From contig NW_026251712.1 of the NCBI RefSeq assembly GCF_025024155.1, positions 424,501 to 488,500 of the forward strand: 64,000 nt of DNA, given 5' to 3'. Positions 52,627 to 60,839 of the stretch are shown here, one piece after another. The DNA comes from Gamsiella multidivaricata (taxonomy: Eukaryota; Mortierellomycota; Mortierellomycetes; Mortierellales; Mortierellaceae). Every line of letters begins with the position of its first letter. Position 1 is the first letter of the stretch. The position numbers were made by a program, and so were the translations under genes. The notes beneath the pieces were generated by a model, which saw only the letters and a list, made by a program, of their open reading frames with translations, was not told the DNA's origin and searched no databases.

Positions 52627-53692
52627 ATGGACAACAACCCCCGAGGTATATTGCGTGTGAAGTCCTTTTTGCTGTTATCTTCCTTGGCCATGCTCGCACG
52701 TCTTTATCAAATCCCACGCGAATCATCACAGCTCCATGCGCCCCCGTGTGTCTCTGGACGCGTCTGTCGGTCGAGATAGCCCACCGTCCGCACTAAATAC
52801 GCGGGGGTGATGCCGTGGGAATTCATTGCGCAATGGCCCTGCTTGGATCCCTACCCCCCTTTTTGCCGTGCTGTTACGATCTGTCAGCATCAATGGATCA
52901 ACGGGGTCGATATCATCGTGTCTTAGCGATTGCGAGGAAACTAAACCGAGTTTTTTCCGTTCTCTCTTAATTGTCCAGTTTACTTCGACATCACCATCAA
53001 TGACGAGCCAGCGGGCGTATGTACCTGCTCTTTATTTCTCAGTGAATCGATGATGATACGAACGTGGAGCCCGTAAACTGATTCGCTTCCATGATTTTAT
53101 ATCTTTGCCTTCAATTGTATACAGCGCATCGTCATGAAGCTCCGCAAGGATGTTGTTCCCAAGACCGCTGAGAACTTCCGCGCTCTCTGCACCGGTGAGA
53201 AGGGATTCGGTTATGCCGGTTCCTCCTTCCACCGCATCATCCCCGAGTTCATGATCCAGGGTGGTGACTTCACCCGCGGCAACGGTACCGGCGGCAAGTC
53301 CATCTACGGTGAGAAGTAAGTGCCTTCTGCCGCCTTGCATTTCAAGCCCTCTATGTCCTCAGATTCTATTTCGAATCGTGTACGAGTCCCAGATTCTTAT
53401 GCGCTTTATTCTTGATCCTTTGCCGACATCATCTAGGTTCGCTGATGAGAACTTCACCCTGAAGCACACTGCCCCCTTTGTTCTCTCCATGGCCAATGCT
53501 GGCCCCAACACCAACGGCTCCCAGTTCTTCATTTGCACTGCCAAGACCTCGTGGTTGGATGGCAAGCACACCGTCTTCGGTGAAGTCGTTGAGGGCCAGG
53601 ACATCGTTCGCCAGATTGAGAATCTCGGTTCCGCATCTGGTAGCCCCAAGGCCAAGGTTACCATCGCTGCCTCTGGCGAGCTCCAGCAGTAA
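52627..53692 (+). CDS. Cyclophilin A-type peptidyl-prolyl isomerase, 4 exons
   Basis: Exons 52627-52645, 52979-53016, 53125-53315 and 53437-53692 give 167 residues, the size of cytosolic CypA. Cis-trans proline isomerase and cyclosporin A receptor. Protein start MDNNPR joins [19 protein letters not shown] across two introns. Catalytic and drug-binding residues are present: [15 protein letters not shown] (active-site Arg), [10 protein letters not shown], and the cyclosporin-contacting Trp in [14 protein letters not shown]. The first exon is only 19 nt; it was found because Val1 of the YFDI strand must be split after a G, and only this ATG supplies phase 1 with a GTATAT donor. Confidence 0.93.
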
Positions 53693-54188
53693 ATTTTGCT
53701 CTTTTTTTCGACAAAACAAAAGAAAAACGACAAATGAAGTTCGTGCCTCTCGCAACACAATTGTACAGTTTTTGTAACTTCAGGATTTCATATACAGAAT
53801 AAAAAACCTTCTCTTGCTCTGGCAAAGGATACAAAAGCGGGCGAGAAGAAATGTGGATATCAAACCCCTTGGATTCAAAAACAATTGGTGTTAGGAATAT
53901 GATCGACTTTTGCTTTACTTGGTGCCCGCTGCTGGCGACCGAGGAGTCAGGTAAGCTATATATATAACATACTCGGTAACTCTTGGCCTGCTCGTGAGAA
54001 GATGGAGTGGACTTCTGTGCATTCTGGCTGCAGTGGTGTTGTACATGTACAGTATCTGTCTACCAGAAATCACCCAAATCAAGTAAAAAAGTGACTGGTT
54101 AGAATTCAGAATGGGTTGGGTGTTCATGCACGTTATTTTTTGTATGTTGAACTTACAAATTTTGAAAGAGGGTTCCGGCCCCCTATGA
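53693..54188. other. Non-coding stretch between cyclophilin and the PIN-Fanzor gene
   Basis: The first part is the cyclophilin 3' UTR. The part adjoining the nuclease stop (about 53,900-54,188) has no coding pattern beyond a chance frame. In TnpB/Fanzor elements the guide RNA and element right end lie here, immediately 3' of the nuclease gene. I could not define a terminal repeat. Confidence 0.4.
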
Positions 54189-57100
54189 TTATGTTGATGG
54201 CATGAACTTGGCAGGCCGGCACTGGTTCTGGATTTGCGACAGACACACGGTGGCAATGTTCTCAGAGCCGACAATATCGCGATCAAAGTACATTTGACAG
54301 CTTCGGCAGTACTTTGACCGCCTCTTGTCGGACTCTAAGAACGCCATACACTTGTCACGAGGGCACCGAGCACTGGTGTAGTACTCGTGCACCCCGACCA
54401 CAGTGTGTCCCATAGCCTTTGCCTATCAGCAGCATCAAGGAACAAATAAACAGATGAGAAAAAGTTGCAGTGCGGATGAGAGATGGTATGCCACCCTTTT
54501 CTTTTTTTTTTTCCTTCTTCTTACCTTGCCGACAAATTTCTTCTCGAGTGCACTATGCTTGCTTGGCAGGCCAGTTTGCGAATCAAAAGAGCCCAATCCT
54601 ATTGCAAACACCACTTTTACACCATCCTGCGAGCTCAGCGGCTGGCCAACAAAGTCCTTGCTGACGGCGAGGTCAAGCAAGCCCGCAACTGCGTAGTCAT
54701 ACGTTGCCTGTTGAGCCTGTTGAAGATCCCAGCGCTTCCTTAGCATCCACTGACTGTTGTAAAAGTTAAAAGGCGGACTCTCGTGGCGGTCGCGGCGGTG
54801 CCGTCCGTGCCAGGCGCCTCCAGATACGCCAGATATTCCTCGATCTTCTCTACGGTAAATGAGGGCAGTCTTGCCTCAAGAACATCAATGCGTGCCGCGG
54901 CCTTCTGCTTTTCTAGGAGACGCTTGAAGAGCATGTAAGGCCTGTAGAGGAATGCCCTGCGGATTCGTAAAGACTCTCTTCTCGTAGGTAAGGCGGGGTC
55001 GATTCTTGTCGCTGTCATTGTGTAAACCTCACCCGGGTCAATGCCGATGACCACAGTATCGTCTGGTGGACAAGTGCTAGGAGAGTTGAAGCGCACCTCC
55101 ACGTTTTCTAGGATCTTTGAACTTCGTTTCCAGTTGATGGTGTTGCGTGTGACATCGATCGTATCTGCGCCTGACGTTGGATCAGATGGAGCTTCTGAGC
55201 TGGATGAGGACGAAGCAGTCGCAGTAGGGTCTGTGGGTGGCAGTTGGTGTATCGACAACCTCTGCCGCTTTGAACTTTCTGGTGTCGAAGACGGGAGCGT
55301 GATGCGTTTCTTCTTGGCGGGTCCCGCCGTAGCTGCGACCGGATCTGTACCAGATTCGTCCCCTCCACTTTCAAGAAACGCGTCGTCGAGGTCATAGTCA
55401 CCGTCAACATCGCGGAACAGAGTCACATCCTCGTCGCCGTCGCCATCGTCGTCGTCGTGTTCTTCTTCATCGTCGTCATCGCCCCTGATGCTTTGGCGGG
55501 GTGCTCGGCGTCGCGTTGTCGTTGTATCATGCGCAAGAAGATGCAACACCAGTCCGTTCGTGCAGATGATGCCCCGAAGCTTGAACTTGTGTGGTGCTGT
55601 CTATCACTCTGAAGCGAAACCTTCCTGTAATACCCGTCAAAGCGCGTCGCCGGGTCCAGTCTGTATAGCAGCTTCTCGATGAGAATCCCTTTCTTGCCGA
55701 CGACCTTGGCTTCCGCAGCGTTGGATGTTGTATCGCTCAGCATTCGGACTATAATCGGCCGTGTCGTATTGCTTGTATAGAATAAATGGACAAGGTCCGC
55801 CTCTGACAAGAACACGAAGCCAGCTGCAAACTTTGCCTTGACAAAGTCTGCAAACATGCGCTTCTCGGTATTCTTTTCGAAGAAGTAGTCGATCGGATTG
55901 ACAGCTTCGGGGCGCTCTTCGTTCTCGGAAAACTATTAAAGAAAGTTGAAGAGCTAATGGTCAACACTAGTGCTCCGAAAAGCAAGGAACACAACGGATA
56001 CATCTTGCACACTCTTTAATATACCTTTGCGCCATAGTAATGGACTCGCACTGCATTGTAGACTGCCGCAACAGCAAGCCTCGAGACCGTCGAAGGGAAC
56101 ATCTCTGGTTCTCGTTGGCGAAAGGGGACAAAGCCGGTGAGCGTCGTGTACGCATCAAAGACACGTCGGGCATGGGTGGCTGTTGATTGTGGTTGTGATT
56201 GTGCCTGTGCCTGTACTTGCGGTTGCGGGACGCCAGGAACCAATGGCGTATTTCGAGTGCTCATCCTGCGCGCAGGGGCAACCAATACTCGAACAGCCTG
56301 AGAGCCTCGTCCTTCTTGACCACTGCACAAGAGTGTGTTGAGTACAAAGTAGAAGGCCTTGCTGTCGAGAATGTCTGAAATATCCTCCTTCCGCTGTGTC
56401 ACATCTGTCGCTGTGTCCTTGGAGCGAACAAGCCGCGCGATATCCAGTGCAATAGCCTCGTATATATGCATCTGGATCGCGTTAAGGATCGCAACCGTTG
56501 AACGTAGCCTGTCTGAAAGGAGCTTGCTTTCTGCAACCGAGATCTGATCCATTCGCTTTATGTTGGCCTGGATACTCCCCACAGTGAGTGCCTTGGTTAT
56601 ATGCAGCTTACGAAGGTGGCGGTCCGCTGCAATTGCAGAAGTGGGTCGTGGGTTCGATGGGTCGGCAGTGCCCCCTTCTCCCTCTTTTTCTTGTTCTTCT
56701 TCTTCACGATCGCCTTCCGAGACTTGACGAGGGGCTTTGCTTTTGGCTGTGGGCGATCGTGAGGTACGGCAGTCGAGAAGTCAATCGATTGTCGGTAGGA
56801 TCGATTTCTTGTCTGAAAAGATCGGCCGGAACTGGTTCCGCTTTGAGTTCCTCGCAACGTAGAAGGGAACCGCGCTAGTAAATATACGCATACATCGCCA
56901 TGCAAAGGGTGTTAGAGAACTTGATACCTGTACAACGCGTGCGTGAATGAAGTGGTTTCGCACTTAAATTACCTTCTACTCGCATGCTGATATGCAGCGA
57001 CGGCAAATCGCTGCAGCTTGAGGTGCCGGAACTGCGGTGCTGCACTGTTGAAATCAAAGCCGAGCATGTCCTCACCGGCGGCCTCATCTCCTGGTTGCAG

Positions 57101-58114
57101 TTGGAGCACTTTCTCCTCGAGATCCAAAAAGATGTCTTCCGATGGCTTGAATCGGCTCTGGTCGATAACCTCATGGGTTTTGATGGCTGCCATGAATCTG
57201 TAAGCATCGAGCATATGGCTAATATCGGGCGACTGGGGTAGGGCGCGGATGATCTCCAGGTTGCGAACTATTCCAAGGCTGGGAATGTTCTCAGTATAGT
57301 CGTTCTTGGACACGATGCCCAGCAGCGTCACATAGTCTGCGCTGGGAACGTGAAGTGCATTGGTAACACTCTCCTTGGTATACAATGCATAGGCCAGGCC
57401 GTGGAAGATCGGCCGCAAAACCTTGGTGACCGACGGATATATCAACAGATCGGAATCTGCTGACACCACGAAGCTACCGGCTGCCATGGTCAGTGTGCAT
57501 GCAATGCAGGTGTCGGCCTCGGTCTTGCAAGTGCAGACAGAAAACCCCTTTTCTCGTAAGGCATCCCGGAGTGTCTGCTTGGCTGCTGCATCAAATCTGT
57601 ATACATCGCGGAGGCCCTTCTTGATCTTCGTTATCACGCTCTTCGAGGTCCATTGGCCGTTCGACGACTTCGTGCTCATGACTTTCAAGTCCGCCTGTAA
57701 CTTCTTGAGGTCCGCTGTCAGTCTGTTCTTTCGCCTGATGTGCTCGTTCCGCTTCTGTTGAGATGGGGCGCCATCGATGTGAATCGTACATTGCGCAGGA
57801 GTAAAGTCCTTCGCCAAACGCGCTGCCATCGTGAGACTGACAGCTCGGACCTTGCTTGGATCGTAATCATCCGTGATCTGGCGAACGAGGGATCCATAAA
57901 ACGCGCCGAAGAGGTCAACCTTAACAGCTTGGTTCTGGTAATCTTGAGGATCCGCGGCAACTGGATCCAAACCGCGCTTCTTCAGAGTAACAAAAGGCTT
58001 TGATAAAGAGCCATCACACTGATAAATGCTAGTCGCTTGACACGAAGCACGATCAGTGATATACGAGTAGTTTTGCCACGGCTTGACACAGATGTCCACC
58101 CACATCCCCATCAT
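54189..58114 (-). CDS. XPG/FEN1-like PIN nuclease joined to Fanzor/TnpB-like RuvC nuclease; frame-broken copy
   Basis: Exon 1 (58114-56980) is a PIN/FEN1-type nuclease of about 378 residues: KVDLFG (Asp67), IHIDGAP (Asp114), KTEADTCIA (Glu199, Asp201), VSADSDLLIY (Asp220, Asp222) and SKNDYTENIPSLG (Asp272). A phase-1 donor leads to 56874-56612 (basic linker), then 56567-56025 (helical Fanzor N-terminal region ending VRVHYYGAK), 55932-54525 and 54422-54189. The RuvC half shows FKLRGIICTNGLVLHLL, VIGIDPGEVYT (RuvC-I Asp), FYNSQWMLRKRWDLQ, FAIGLGSFDSQTG, VVGVHEYYTS (candidate relocated Glu), the zinc ribbon RCPRDKC...YCRSC, and FDRDIVGSENIA (RuvC-III Asp). About 1,190 codons. The coding frame moves by -1 near 55,590 and 54,800, and possibly in the linker. 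I recall similar fused proteins among Mortierellaceae hypothetical proteins (unverified). Confidence 0.75.
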
Positions 58115-58957
58115 CGCTGTTTCCAACGTACGCAGGTAGGTGCAAATCTAGATAGGTCGCTAGGGATGCAATGGAGGATAGGGAAATCAGTCAAGTAGCG
58201 CGGTCAACCTTCAAAGGACTAAAGCCTATGAGAACTTTTGATATTAAATTACGGGGAAGAGCACCGCTCCCAGAATAAAAGAATAAACGGTCTGTTCCTG
58301 AACCAGAGTCTTCTTCACATATATATCTTGTATGCATTCGTCTAGATTGTCCGGATAACACCGCATCATCGACAGGTACTGACTGCCGTCGTCAGCAACC
58401 CACGCAACGAGATACAATCAACAGAGAATGCCAAGCCTGATCATTCGCCACCTTTGCACTATCAATTGCAACGTTTCCCCGATTTCCGATCGTCTCATTA
58501 TTGAGCATCCGTCATCGGCTTACCCTCGTGAAACGGTATTATAAAGGTACAATGGAGGCCTAATCAGCGAACATTGCCATACAACGACTCCTGAGGGGTG
58601 GACTTCATTGTCACGACTTCTCACTTCATCGGACATCATATATGTGAATACCTTGTAACTACCCCCAGTCATTCTCAATGGAACATAGTCCTAGCTCGAA
58701 CCATTTAGCCAAACAACTCCCTATATTTATTTCCTTCTATCTCTGTCTAGTCTATTTTACCTTTGTGTCAATTCATTCCGATCTAAAGGAAGACCCTGCA
58801 CCGCGAACCAGTAAATGACCGAAGCACGCCCTCGCCGAAGTCCTAATCGCGCGGTGTCTCCTGTTGTAAATAGAACTAATAGTAGAAGTTACAAAGCTCG
58901 TTGTTAGACCCCCTATACAGCAGGATGAGTACCAAGCATTCCGGCGCTGTACATATA
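58115..58957. other. Upstream flank of the nuclease gene, no gene seen
   Basis: About 840 bp between the PIN-Fanzor start and the Tc1 element. Nothing coding is seen, and no terminal inverted repeat matching the 53.7-54.2 kb side was found by eye. Confidence 0.4.
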
Positions 58958-59068
58958 CAGCCACCTAACAATTATAATTGGGCAACTTTAATTTTTCTAG
59001 CCATGAGCAAATAAATGCAACACGACTTTCTTCTCCAAGCACAGTCGACAGCAACTTGAGTAACCACC

Positions 59069-60154
59069 ATGCCGACACAGTTATCCATGGAAAAAAAAGG
59101 TATTATCGTTGAAATGAGTCTAGCGGGAATGAGCCATGCGGAAATTGCAACGAAACGCAACACACCCAGGTCCACGGTTACCAATATTATTCACATCTAC
59201 CATCTAAGAGGCACCACTGCACACGCCCCAGGTTCTGGACTGCCAAGAGCGCTCAGTGAGAGAGACATTAGGAGCATGATACGCAATACCAAGCGTGAAA
59301 GACGTGTCACTCTACGGGATATCACCAACATGGTACCCCATGAGGTGAGCGAATACACCGCTCGGAGAGCGCTCCATTCAGCTGACATTTTCAGCCGGGT
59401 AGCCGCAAAGAAACCTTATCTCAGCGACGTTTACAAGGATAGTCGACTCACATTTATGCGGAGGTACAGCAAATGGACAACAGAGCAATGGTCGAAGGTA
59501 GTATGGACTGATGAGTCAATATTCGAGGTTGGAGAGAATTTTCGCCAGATTCGAGTTTGGCGAACAGCGGAGGAAAAGTACGATGGCGATTGCCTCGCAC
59601 CTACTTTCAAGAGTGGTAGGACCTCCCTCATGGTCTGGGGCGCATTTACAGCTACTGAGAAGTCCAGGCTGGTTGTTTTTGAGCGAGGACGTCGCGACGG
59701 ACAGTGCTTCGTGGAGGATGTGTATGAGGGTGAATTGCTCAGGTTTATGACGGAGGTAAAGGATGGAATCCTCATGGAGGATGGAATCCTCATGGAGGAT
59801 GGAATCCTCATGGAGGATGGAATCCTCATGGAGGATGGAATCCTCATGGAGGATGGTGCCCCAGTGCGCAGCAACGCGCTATCAAAGAATTGGCGCCAAG
59901 CACACGGCTTTCGCAAGATAGAGGACTGGCTAGCCAACTCCTTAGATTTGAGCCCCATCGAGCATGTCTGGTCCCTCCTTGGTACTTCTCTCACTCGACG
60001 ACAAAGACAACCCTGGGACATTGCAACCCTGGTGAGAGCTCTAGTGGAGGAGTGGGATGCTTTACCACAAGAACAGCTGGCAAAGCTGATCGACACGATG
60101 CCCCAGAAACTGGAATTCGTGAAAAAGTACAGCGGCGGTAATAGCAGATATTGA
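59069..60154 (+). CDS. Tc1-family DDE transposase
   Basis: A single 361-residue frame. Two N-terminal helix-turn-helix regions are present (MSHAEIATKRNTPRSTVTNI and TLRDITNMVPHEVSEYTARRAL-type) with an intervening GSGLPRALS linker. The catalytic triad is visible: Asp148 in VVWTDES, Asp262 in LMEDGAPV, Glu298 in DLSPIEHVW, with 35 residues between the last two. The Leu-Met-Glu-Asp-Gly unit before the second Asp is tandemly repeated five times by an 18-bp minisatellite, so the spacing between the first and second catalytic Asp is increased. The frame is otherwise intact, so recent activity is plausible. Confidence 0.93.
   Translation: MPTQLSMEKKGIIVEMSLAGMSHAEIATKRNTPRSTVTNIIHIYHLRGTTAHAPGSGLPRALSERDIRSMIRNTKRERRVTLRDITNMVPHEVSEYTARRALHSADIFSRVAAKKPYLSDVYKDSRLTFMRRYSKWTTEQWSKVVWTDESIFEVGENFRQIRVWRTAEEKYDGDCLAPTFKSGRTSLMVWGAFTATEKSRLVVFERGRRDGQCFVEDVYEGELLRFMTEVKDGILMEDGILMEDGILMEDGILMEDGILMEDGAPVRSNALSKNWRQAHGFRKIEDWLANSLDLSPIEHVWSLLGTSLTRRQRQPWDIATLVRALVEEWDALPQEQLAKLIDTMPQKLEFVKKYSGGNSRY
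59761..59850. repeat. 18-bp in-frame minisatellite inside the transposase gene, 5 units
   Basis: Five identical GGATGGAATCCTCATGGA units, followed by a partial sixth that leads into the true catalytic motif. Each unit encodes D-G-I-L-M-E in frame. Confidence 0.97.
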
Positions 60155-60285
60155 ACGAGCTGCAGCCCTCTCCTTCAGCATACATCACTCTGATATTCAC
60201 CAAGGATGTTTCCATAACTCTTGAGGTGTGTTGTATATAGGTAATTTAAAATTATGATTGGCCAATTACTTTTGTTCGGTGACTG

Positions 60286-60839
60286 TACGTCACGTATAAG
60301 GCAGTCACTTTGGCATGGTATACGGCGGTGGTGCTTCCTCTGCCTTGACATCGCCACCGCGCCTTTCTTCTTCAACAACGATCAATCATCGCTCTTACCC
60401 ACGACTCCACCTTCAATTGTGAATCACATTCCTGTCGAGGAAATCGAGCAAAAAACCCCAAGGGCGCATAGAGATACAACGAAATAGTGCCCGTACACTA
60501 GAGGACACCTGGACGCTTGGACCATCGGCGCTTTTTGCCTGCAATTCCACGTGTACGCGACCACCATGCTGGATCCTTTACAGTTGCCGCAGCAATCCCA
60601 AAGAGAAGAATGTTTGTATACTAACCATTGGCGCTTCAACTAGTCCAGTAGGATTAGGATTGTGCATTCTTGCTTCGTTGTGGATTTTAACAGCTATAAC
60701 CCAAACACGCCATCAGGTAAGTCTGTCAGACTAAGCAATGGCTAAGCAATGGTTCTATGCTCTGGGAACATGACGCATATCTAACCATTATGACACATCT
60801 TTTCAAAATCCAGCTTGAGGAAACCGGTCTTTGTCGAAA
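60286..60839. promoter_or_regulatory. Upstream region and probable 5' UTR intron of TSC2
   Basis: Contains a good intron without coding content: donor CAG|GTAAGT (intron from 60,717), branch TCTAAC and acceptor TCCAG (intron end 60,813), 26 bp before the TSC2 ATG. A non-coding first exon upstream is therefore likely. Confidence 0.55.

What the first reader, a model, noticed from the sequence alone, without database searches (positions are those of the whole stretch)
54189..58114. Two unrelated nucleases in one gene: XPG/FEN1-like PIN domain fused to a Fanzor-type RuvC nuclease
Seen: a PIN/FEN1-like exon with all expected acidic positions (Asp67, Asp114, Glu199, Asp201, Asp220, Asp222, Asp272) is followed on the same strand, 100 bp later, by basic linker exons and a RuvC/zinc-ribbon module with GIDPG, HEYYTS, a four-Cys ribbon and DRDIVGSENI. 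Known: Fanzors are eukaryotic relatives of transposon TnpB and act as RNA-guided DNA endonucleases; FEN1/XPG enzymes cut flapped DNA. Inference: a flap/structure-specific nuclease physically tied to an RNA-guided nuclease could trim or resolve the break it makes, or help a mobile element home. I recall proteins of this layout as common in Mortierellaceae annotations, but know of no characterised member.
Basis: partly seen in the sequence, partly recalled or inferred. Interest (0 to 1): 0.92.

Follow-up and report, generated by a model that had tools for sequence, protein, structure and literature searches.

The report
Flap nuclease fused to RNA-guided nuclease
A family of jumping genes in soil fungi encodes one protein that joins a FEN1/EXO1-type DNA-trimming nuclease to a Fanzor, the eukaryotic relative of CRISPR nucleases; the copy in this window is a broken member of that family.

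Summary

It belongs to a dispersed, transposon-like repeat; the adjacent Tc1/mariner is separate.

RNA guidance, nuclease activity and a joint transcript are inferred; the one 3' region folded looks unstructured. The held literature I searched does not describe the fusion. New variant of a known kind: a Fanzor1 with a built-in 5' nuclease, plausibly a cut-and-resect homing enzyme.

The parts
54046..58942 (-). Dispersed repeat (transposon-like element), truncated at its 5' side in this copy
   Evidence: 91-98% identical blocks at five other loci; 3' end region matches 15 other loci, 12 of them ending at the same point
56973..57985 (-). Exon 2: FEN1/XPG-type PIN nuclease, residues after the lost MGIRGLYST start
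   Evidence: profile A2 to RAD2/XPG/FEN1/EXO1; catalytic acids all present
56875..56972 (-). Intron between PIN and linker exons (GT-AG)
   Evidence: donor GT in 6 of 6 aligned copies, acceptor AG in 5 of 6
56025..56874 (-). Exon 3: basic linker and start of WED/REC; frame disrupted in this copy
   Evidence: linker motif shared with M. alpina proteins
55933..56024 (-). Intron (GT-AG)
54525..55932 (-). Exon 4: rest of WED/REC, acidic stretch, RuvC-I (GIDPG) and RuvC body; frame disrupted in this copy
   Evidence: profile A3 to TnpB-like L79 and SpuFz1
54423..54524 (-). Intron (GT-AG)
54189..54422 (-). Exon 5: RuvC-II glutamate (HEYYTS), zinc ribbon, RuvC-III (DRD), stop
   Evidence: PF07282 38.8 bits
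57986..58942 (-).
   Evidence: present in five of five other copies
54046..54188 (-). 3' untranslated region and sharp 3' terminus (...CAGATACTG then TA)
   Evidence: no unusual RNA structure, z -0.21

Best explanation
Shown: Mortierellaceae carry a transposon-like family whose gene encodes, in one protein, a FEN1/EXO1/XPG-type 5' nuclease at the N terminus, a basic linker and a complete Fanzor1 (WED, REC, RuvC, zinc ribbon); both active sites are conserved, and the window holds a decayed copy. Inferred mechanism: the Fanzor half binds a guide RNA, finds a matching site such as the element's empty allele and makes a double-strand break; the tethered 5' nuclease then resects the 5' ends or clips 5' flaps, leaving 3' tails that push repair towards homologous copying of the element into the break (a cut-and-resect homing enzyme in one chain). 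I hold the architecture at about 0.95; the confidence given is for architecture plus the claim that the PIN acts on the DNA ends made by the Fanzor.
Against: No transcript; no uninterrupted ORF spans PIN and WED/RuvC in fetched loci. Six of six window-family copies read in full are disabled. No sign of a structured guide RNA in the one 3' region folded. 42 of 100 PIN loci and 52 of 109 zinc ribbons are unpaired. 19 of 42 homologues lack one or both halves, and in 6 of the 23 one half is a fragment under 100 residues. One genome subfamily has Q for a PIN catalytic E (L046). Nothing here tests activity.
Confidence: 0.5

Rival explanations
1. The PIN half processes RNA: it matures the Fanzor's guide RNA from the element transcript, or trims its 5' end, rather than acting on the cut DNA.
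For: Fanzor guide RNAs vary in length, 75 to 150 nt, and are matured (PMC11423790 passages). From recall: the 5'-nuclease superfamily includes RNases such as Rat1/Xrn1, which also appear weakly in the first Foldseek list.
Against: The best structure matches are DNA enzymes, EXO1 and FEN1; most known Fanzors lack such a domain yet function (PMC11423790 passages).
Confidence: 0.2
2. The PIN half serves transposition itself, cutting or trimming element ends or joints during excision or integration, and the Fanzor half acts independently.
For: The genes lie in dispersed elements with sharp 3' ends and no transposase that I could name inside them.
Against: FEN1/XPG enzymes are not known transposases (recall). 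One divergent locus has a weak DDE_3-like ORF 0.5 kb upstream, so another enzyme may move the elements.
Confidence: 0.15
3. Passive passenger: the PIN was captured once and has no role; the family is decaying.
For: All six window-family copies read in full are broken; two of three unpaired zinc-ribbon loci read are 5'-truncated members without PIN.
Against: PIN acids stay nearly invariant in proteins as low as 23-25% identical to the first sequence; PIN dN/dS 0.28-0.60 in six comparisons.
Confidence: 0.1
4. Two neighbouring genes that gene predictors merge.
For: PIN and WED/RuvC lie in different ORFs in the fetched loci; no transcript seen.
Against: Exons join in phase with GT-AG sites; the linker before any methionine of exon 3 is conserved as protein in M. 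alpina; many independent predictions in six genera agree; in two loci the PIN and the basic linker share one ORF.
Confidence: 0.05

Closest known systems
Fanzor1 (SpuFz1, GtFz1, PpFz1)
   Different: About 350 extra N-terminal residues forming a second nuclease; most Fz1 proteins are 600-700 aa (PMC11423790 passage); RuvC-I is DLG, not DPG, in the larger clade
FEN1 / EXO1 / XPG(RAD2) 5' nucleases
   Different: Fused to a Fanzor and carried by a dispersed element; family close to but usually below the Pfam XPG cut-offs
Mariner-Fanzor1 elements such as PGv-1 (Bao and Jurka 2013)
   Same: A Fanzor1 kept together with another nuclease in one mobile element (PMC3627910 passages)
   Different: There the other nuclease is GIY-YIG and a separate protein, beside a mariner transposase; here it is a 5' nuclease in the same chain, and no mariner is shared by the copies
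'Fanzor flap endonuclease homologs (Fendons)' in two viral contigs
   Same: The phrase joins the two names (PMC11071296 passage)
   Different: No fusion or domain layout is described there; it may only be a label

Membership tests
Fanzor1 | WED-REC-RuvC-TNB fold of Fz1 | tested here: met
Fanzor1 | RuvC D-E-D triad with the glutamate six residues before the zinc ribbon | tested here: met
   33/34, 23/23, 25/25 letters (38 of 42 proteins); spacing 6 in 23 of 23 motifs found among 42 proteins; window HEYYTSARC
Fanzor1 | DPG at RuvC-I, near exclusive in Fanzors (PMC10711439 passage) | tested here: inconclusive
   Met in the window (GIDPG) and in P0001, P0002, P0003, P0006, P0008; mostly DLG, once DMG and once DFG, in the other clade
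Fanzor1 | RNA-guided DNA cleavage with a guide RNA from the element's end | not testable with these tools
   Only a fold of one 141-nt 3' region, z -0.21, which gives no support
FEN1/XPG 5' nuclease family | PIN-like 5'-nuclease fold | tested here: met
FEN1/XPG 5' nuclease family | Seven catalytic acids | tested here: met
   13/13, 17/17, 19/19, 19/19, 18/20, 20/22, 23/24 letters among 38 of 42 proteins; one genome subfamily has Q for the first E (L046)
FEN1/XPG 5' nuclease family | Curated Pfam cut-off for XPG_I or XPG_I_2 | tested here: inconclusive
   Passed by P0026 (both) and P0020 (XPG_I_2); missed by P0014 and P0023, by P0001-P0007 and by the window PIN
FEN1/XPG 5' nuclease family | 5' flap or 5' exonuclease activity | not testable with these tools
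   none
Tc1/mariner Fanzor element | Mariner transposase inside the same element as the Fanzor | tested here: not met
   No match to window 58943-60300 in the five other copies; mariner relatives lie elsewhere, though one sits about 1 kb from a zinc-ribbon hit on C131

The most novel reading that the evidence does not exclude
A natural one-chain cut-and-resect system: an RNA-guided Fanzor1 whose tethered EXO1/FEN1-like domain resects the 5' ends of its own break and so steers repair to homologous copying, letting the element home into matching empty sites. I know of no RNA-guided nuclease with a natural fused 5' end-processing nuclease (recall; searches).
Probability: 0.3. Interest if true: 0.95.

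Novelty: new variant of a known kind. Interest (0 to 1): 0.84.

Why it matters
[quoted passage not shown] PMC3627910 passages). A Fanzor lineage that fused and kept a 5' nuclease, with both active sites conserved across genera, makes one answer testable: if the break has to be resected for homing, this lineage carries the tool in cis. It is also a natural precedent for fusing exonucleases to programmable nucleases to bias repair, and complete proteins from Mortierella alpina (P0008, 1,121 aa; P0001, 1,186 aa) are at hand for assay.

Tried and rejected

Led nowhere: the first AlphaFold job (P0001, 7 sequences) reached pLDDT 44.7; its top 26 Foldseek rows were FEN1/EXO1/RAD2, all above E 1e-3, with no Fanzor among the 50 shown. 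The A1 profile against PDB found EXO1 only at E 0.44 or worse; P0001 alone found only weak low-complexity matches. A target-site duplication was not established: of five copies with both ends readable, two show 5 of 6 matching bases and three do not, judged by eye. Pfam named no transposase in the type A and B 5' modules. The VIA list is filled by the PIN half; one Fanzor row is among the 50 shown. PADLOC gave weak Cas12-type matches to the ribbon only.

Unpaired loci: I read 3 of 52 unpaired zinc ribbons; two are 5'-truncated relatives without PIN, one is at a contig end. The 42 PIN loci without a ribbon were not examined one by one.

Literature (held library only): Fanzor 82 papers, 40 seen as a listing; Fanzor+XPG 0; Fanzor+Mortierell 0; Fanzor+flap endonuclease 2, passages of both; TnpB+Mortierella 0; Fanzor+PIN domain 0; Mortierellomycotina+transposable elements+endonuclease 1, listing only; Fanzor+domain fusion 2, passages of one, listing of the other; TnpB+XPG 1, listing only. 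Passages of four Fanzor papers were read, none in full. Jiang et al. 2023 (recalled) is not held; supplements were not searchable.

Full report
1. Where and what. The window is part of contig C115 of a 37.5-Mb assembly. The organism is very probably Gamsiella multidivaricata (Mortierellaceae): its public protein P0015 is on a contig of 454,209 bases, the length of C98 here, and equals the spliced translation of C98 in 601 of 601 residues.

2. The gene. Minus-strand exons are 57985-56973 (PIN), 56874-56025 (linker and start of WED/REC), 55932-54525 (rest of WED/REC, acidic stretch, RuvC) and 54422-54189 (RuvC-II glutamate, zinc ribbon, RuvC-III), placed by comparing six copies. In copy L039 the four exons join in one frame into 1,165 residues with one internal stop codon. 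The window lost it, apparently between short repeats, and has further frame-disrupting losses in exons 3 and 4. All six copies read in full have at least one disabling lesion.

3. A dispersed element. Window 54046-58942 matches five loci at 91-98%. Its 3' region matches 15 other loci, 12 of which stop at the same point. In eight copies the 3' end reads CAGATACTG or CAGATACCG and is followed by TA (seven, the window); two of the eight share a flank, so they are not all independent. Two kinds of 5' end were found: type A, about 6.3 kb overall, at four loci that share one 5' start (one degraded there), and type B, about 6.5-6.9 kb, at two loci; a sixth copy, C126, fits neither. The leader region also matches many other places, including ones far from any PIN hit (40 rows, capped). 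The window copy is cut at 58942, where a separate Tc1/mariner element begins. I established neither a target-site duplication nor the transposase.

4. Genome-wide linkage. PF07282 gives 109 hits. With two PIN queries pooled (14 leader hits dropped) 57 of 109 have a PIN within 6 kb upstream on the same strand, 48 of the 57 at 2.49-4.14 kb; 4 have one downstream, 5 on the other strand; about 0.9 are expected. With the first query alone it was 52 of 109. From the other side, 58 of 100 PIN loci have a ribbon downstream; 42 do not. Of 52 unpaired ribbons I read three: two are 5'-truncated members of the same protein family, one is at a contig end. Subfamilies whose PIN is only 26-31% identical to the window family's keep the same order.

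5. Single proteins elsewhere. Three protein searches gave 42 proteins. With HMMs from divergent PINs (A2) and RuvC regions (A3), 23 of 42 carry both, PIN first in each; in 6 of the 23 one half is a fragment under 100 residues. 14 carry RuvC only (7 labelled partial), 2 PIN only, 3 neither. Two of the 23 (P0001, P0002) were used to build A2 and three (P0001-P0003) to build A3, so those match by construction. The 23 come from Mortierella, Haplosporangium, Linnemannia, Entomortierella, Benniella and Podila, plus one unnamed source. P0026 (Benniella sp.) passes Pfam cut-offs for XPG_I, XPG_I_2 and PF07282 in one chain; P0001-P0007 and P0023 do not pass the XPG cut-offs. P0015, annotated in Gamsiella itself, splices the PIN exon to linker and WED exons by GT-AG introns and then ends early. 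Against this: no uninterrupted ORF in the fetched loci spans PIN and WED or RuvC, though in two loci PIN and basic linker share one ORF; no transcript was seen.

7. How it may work. Shown: one protein family, two conserved nuclease sites, dispersed elements. Inferred: guide RNA, target search, break. The PIN is closest in fold to EXO1 and FEN1, which digest or clip 5' ends (established knowledge of those enzymes). Tethered to a nuclease that makes breaks, its simplest role is to process the 5' ends of that break so that repair copies the element in. I give 0.5 to the PIN acting on those DNA ends and 0.3 to the specific cut-and-resect homing form; RNA maturation by the PIN (0.2) and a role in transposition proper (0.15) are the main rivals. 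The 141-nt 3' untranslated region of one copy folds no better than shuffles (z -0.21), so there is no support yet for a guide RNA there; known Fz1 guide RNAs are 75-150 nt (PMC11423790 passage).

8. Novelty. Most Fz1 proteins are 600-700 aa with conserved organisation, the Parasitella RuvC insertion being the notable exception named (PMC11423790 passage). Searches of the held library found no paper describing a Fanzor fused to a 5' nuclease. [quoted passage not shown] Jiang et al. 2023 and the Fanzor supplements could not be checked. I class it as a new variant of a known kind.

Noticed in passing
window 58943-60300 (ends by eye), ORF 59060-60154: Tc1/mariner-like element (PF01498 above cut-off) directly beside the truncated PIN-Fanzor copy; relatives elsewhere in the genome at 86-90% over residues 1-239.
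   Followed up: partly
window about 59755-59860: In-frame 18-bp tandem repeat (GILMED repeated) inside the mariner transposase, at the place where matches to other copies break between residues 239 and 255.
   Followed up: no
window 53000-53692: Cyclophilin-like gene just downstream; the Parasitella Fanzor binds a cyclophilin through its RuvC insertion (PMC11423790 passages). Probably coincidence, as other copies have other flanks.
   Followed up: no
L039, L040, L041, L043 and extensions L052-L060: Copies share gene and 3' end but have two unrelated 5' modules (type A, type B) with sharp outer ends; how the modules were exchanged is unexplained.
   Followed up: partly
window 58700-58927: The leader region of the element recurs at many places without a PIN hit nearby, in one case as an outward-facing pair about 5.5 kb apart on C68.
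   Followed up: no
L033 1-909 (C98:256640-257548): ORF with a weak DDE_3 match (E 0.0048, below cut-off) about 0.5 kb upstream of a divergent PIN-Fanzor gene, same strand: a possible transposase partner.
   Followed up: partly
P0012-P0042: The larger PIN-Fanzor clade has mostly DLG at RuvC-I and H before the RuvC-III RD, unlike the window clade's DPG and DRD.
   Followed up: partly
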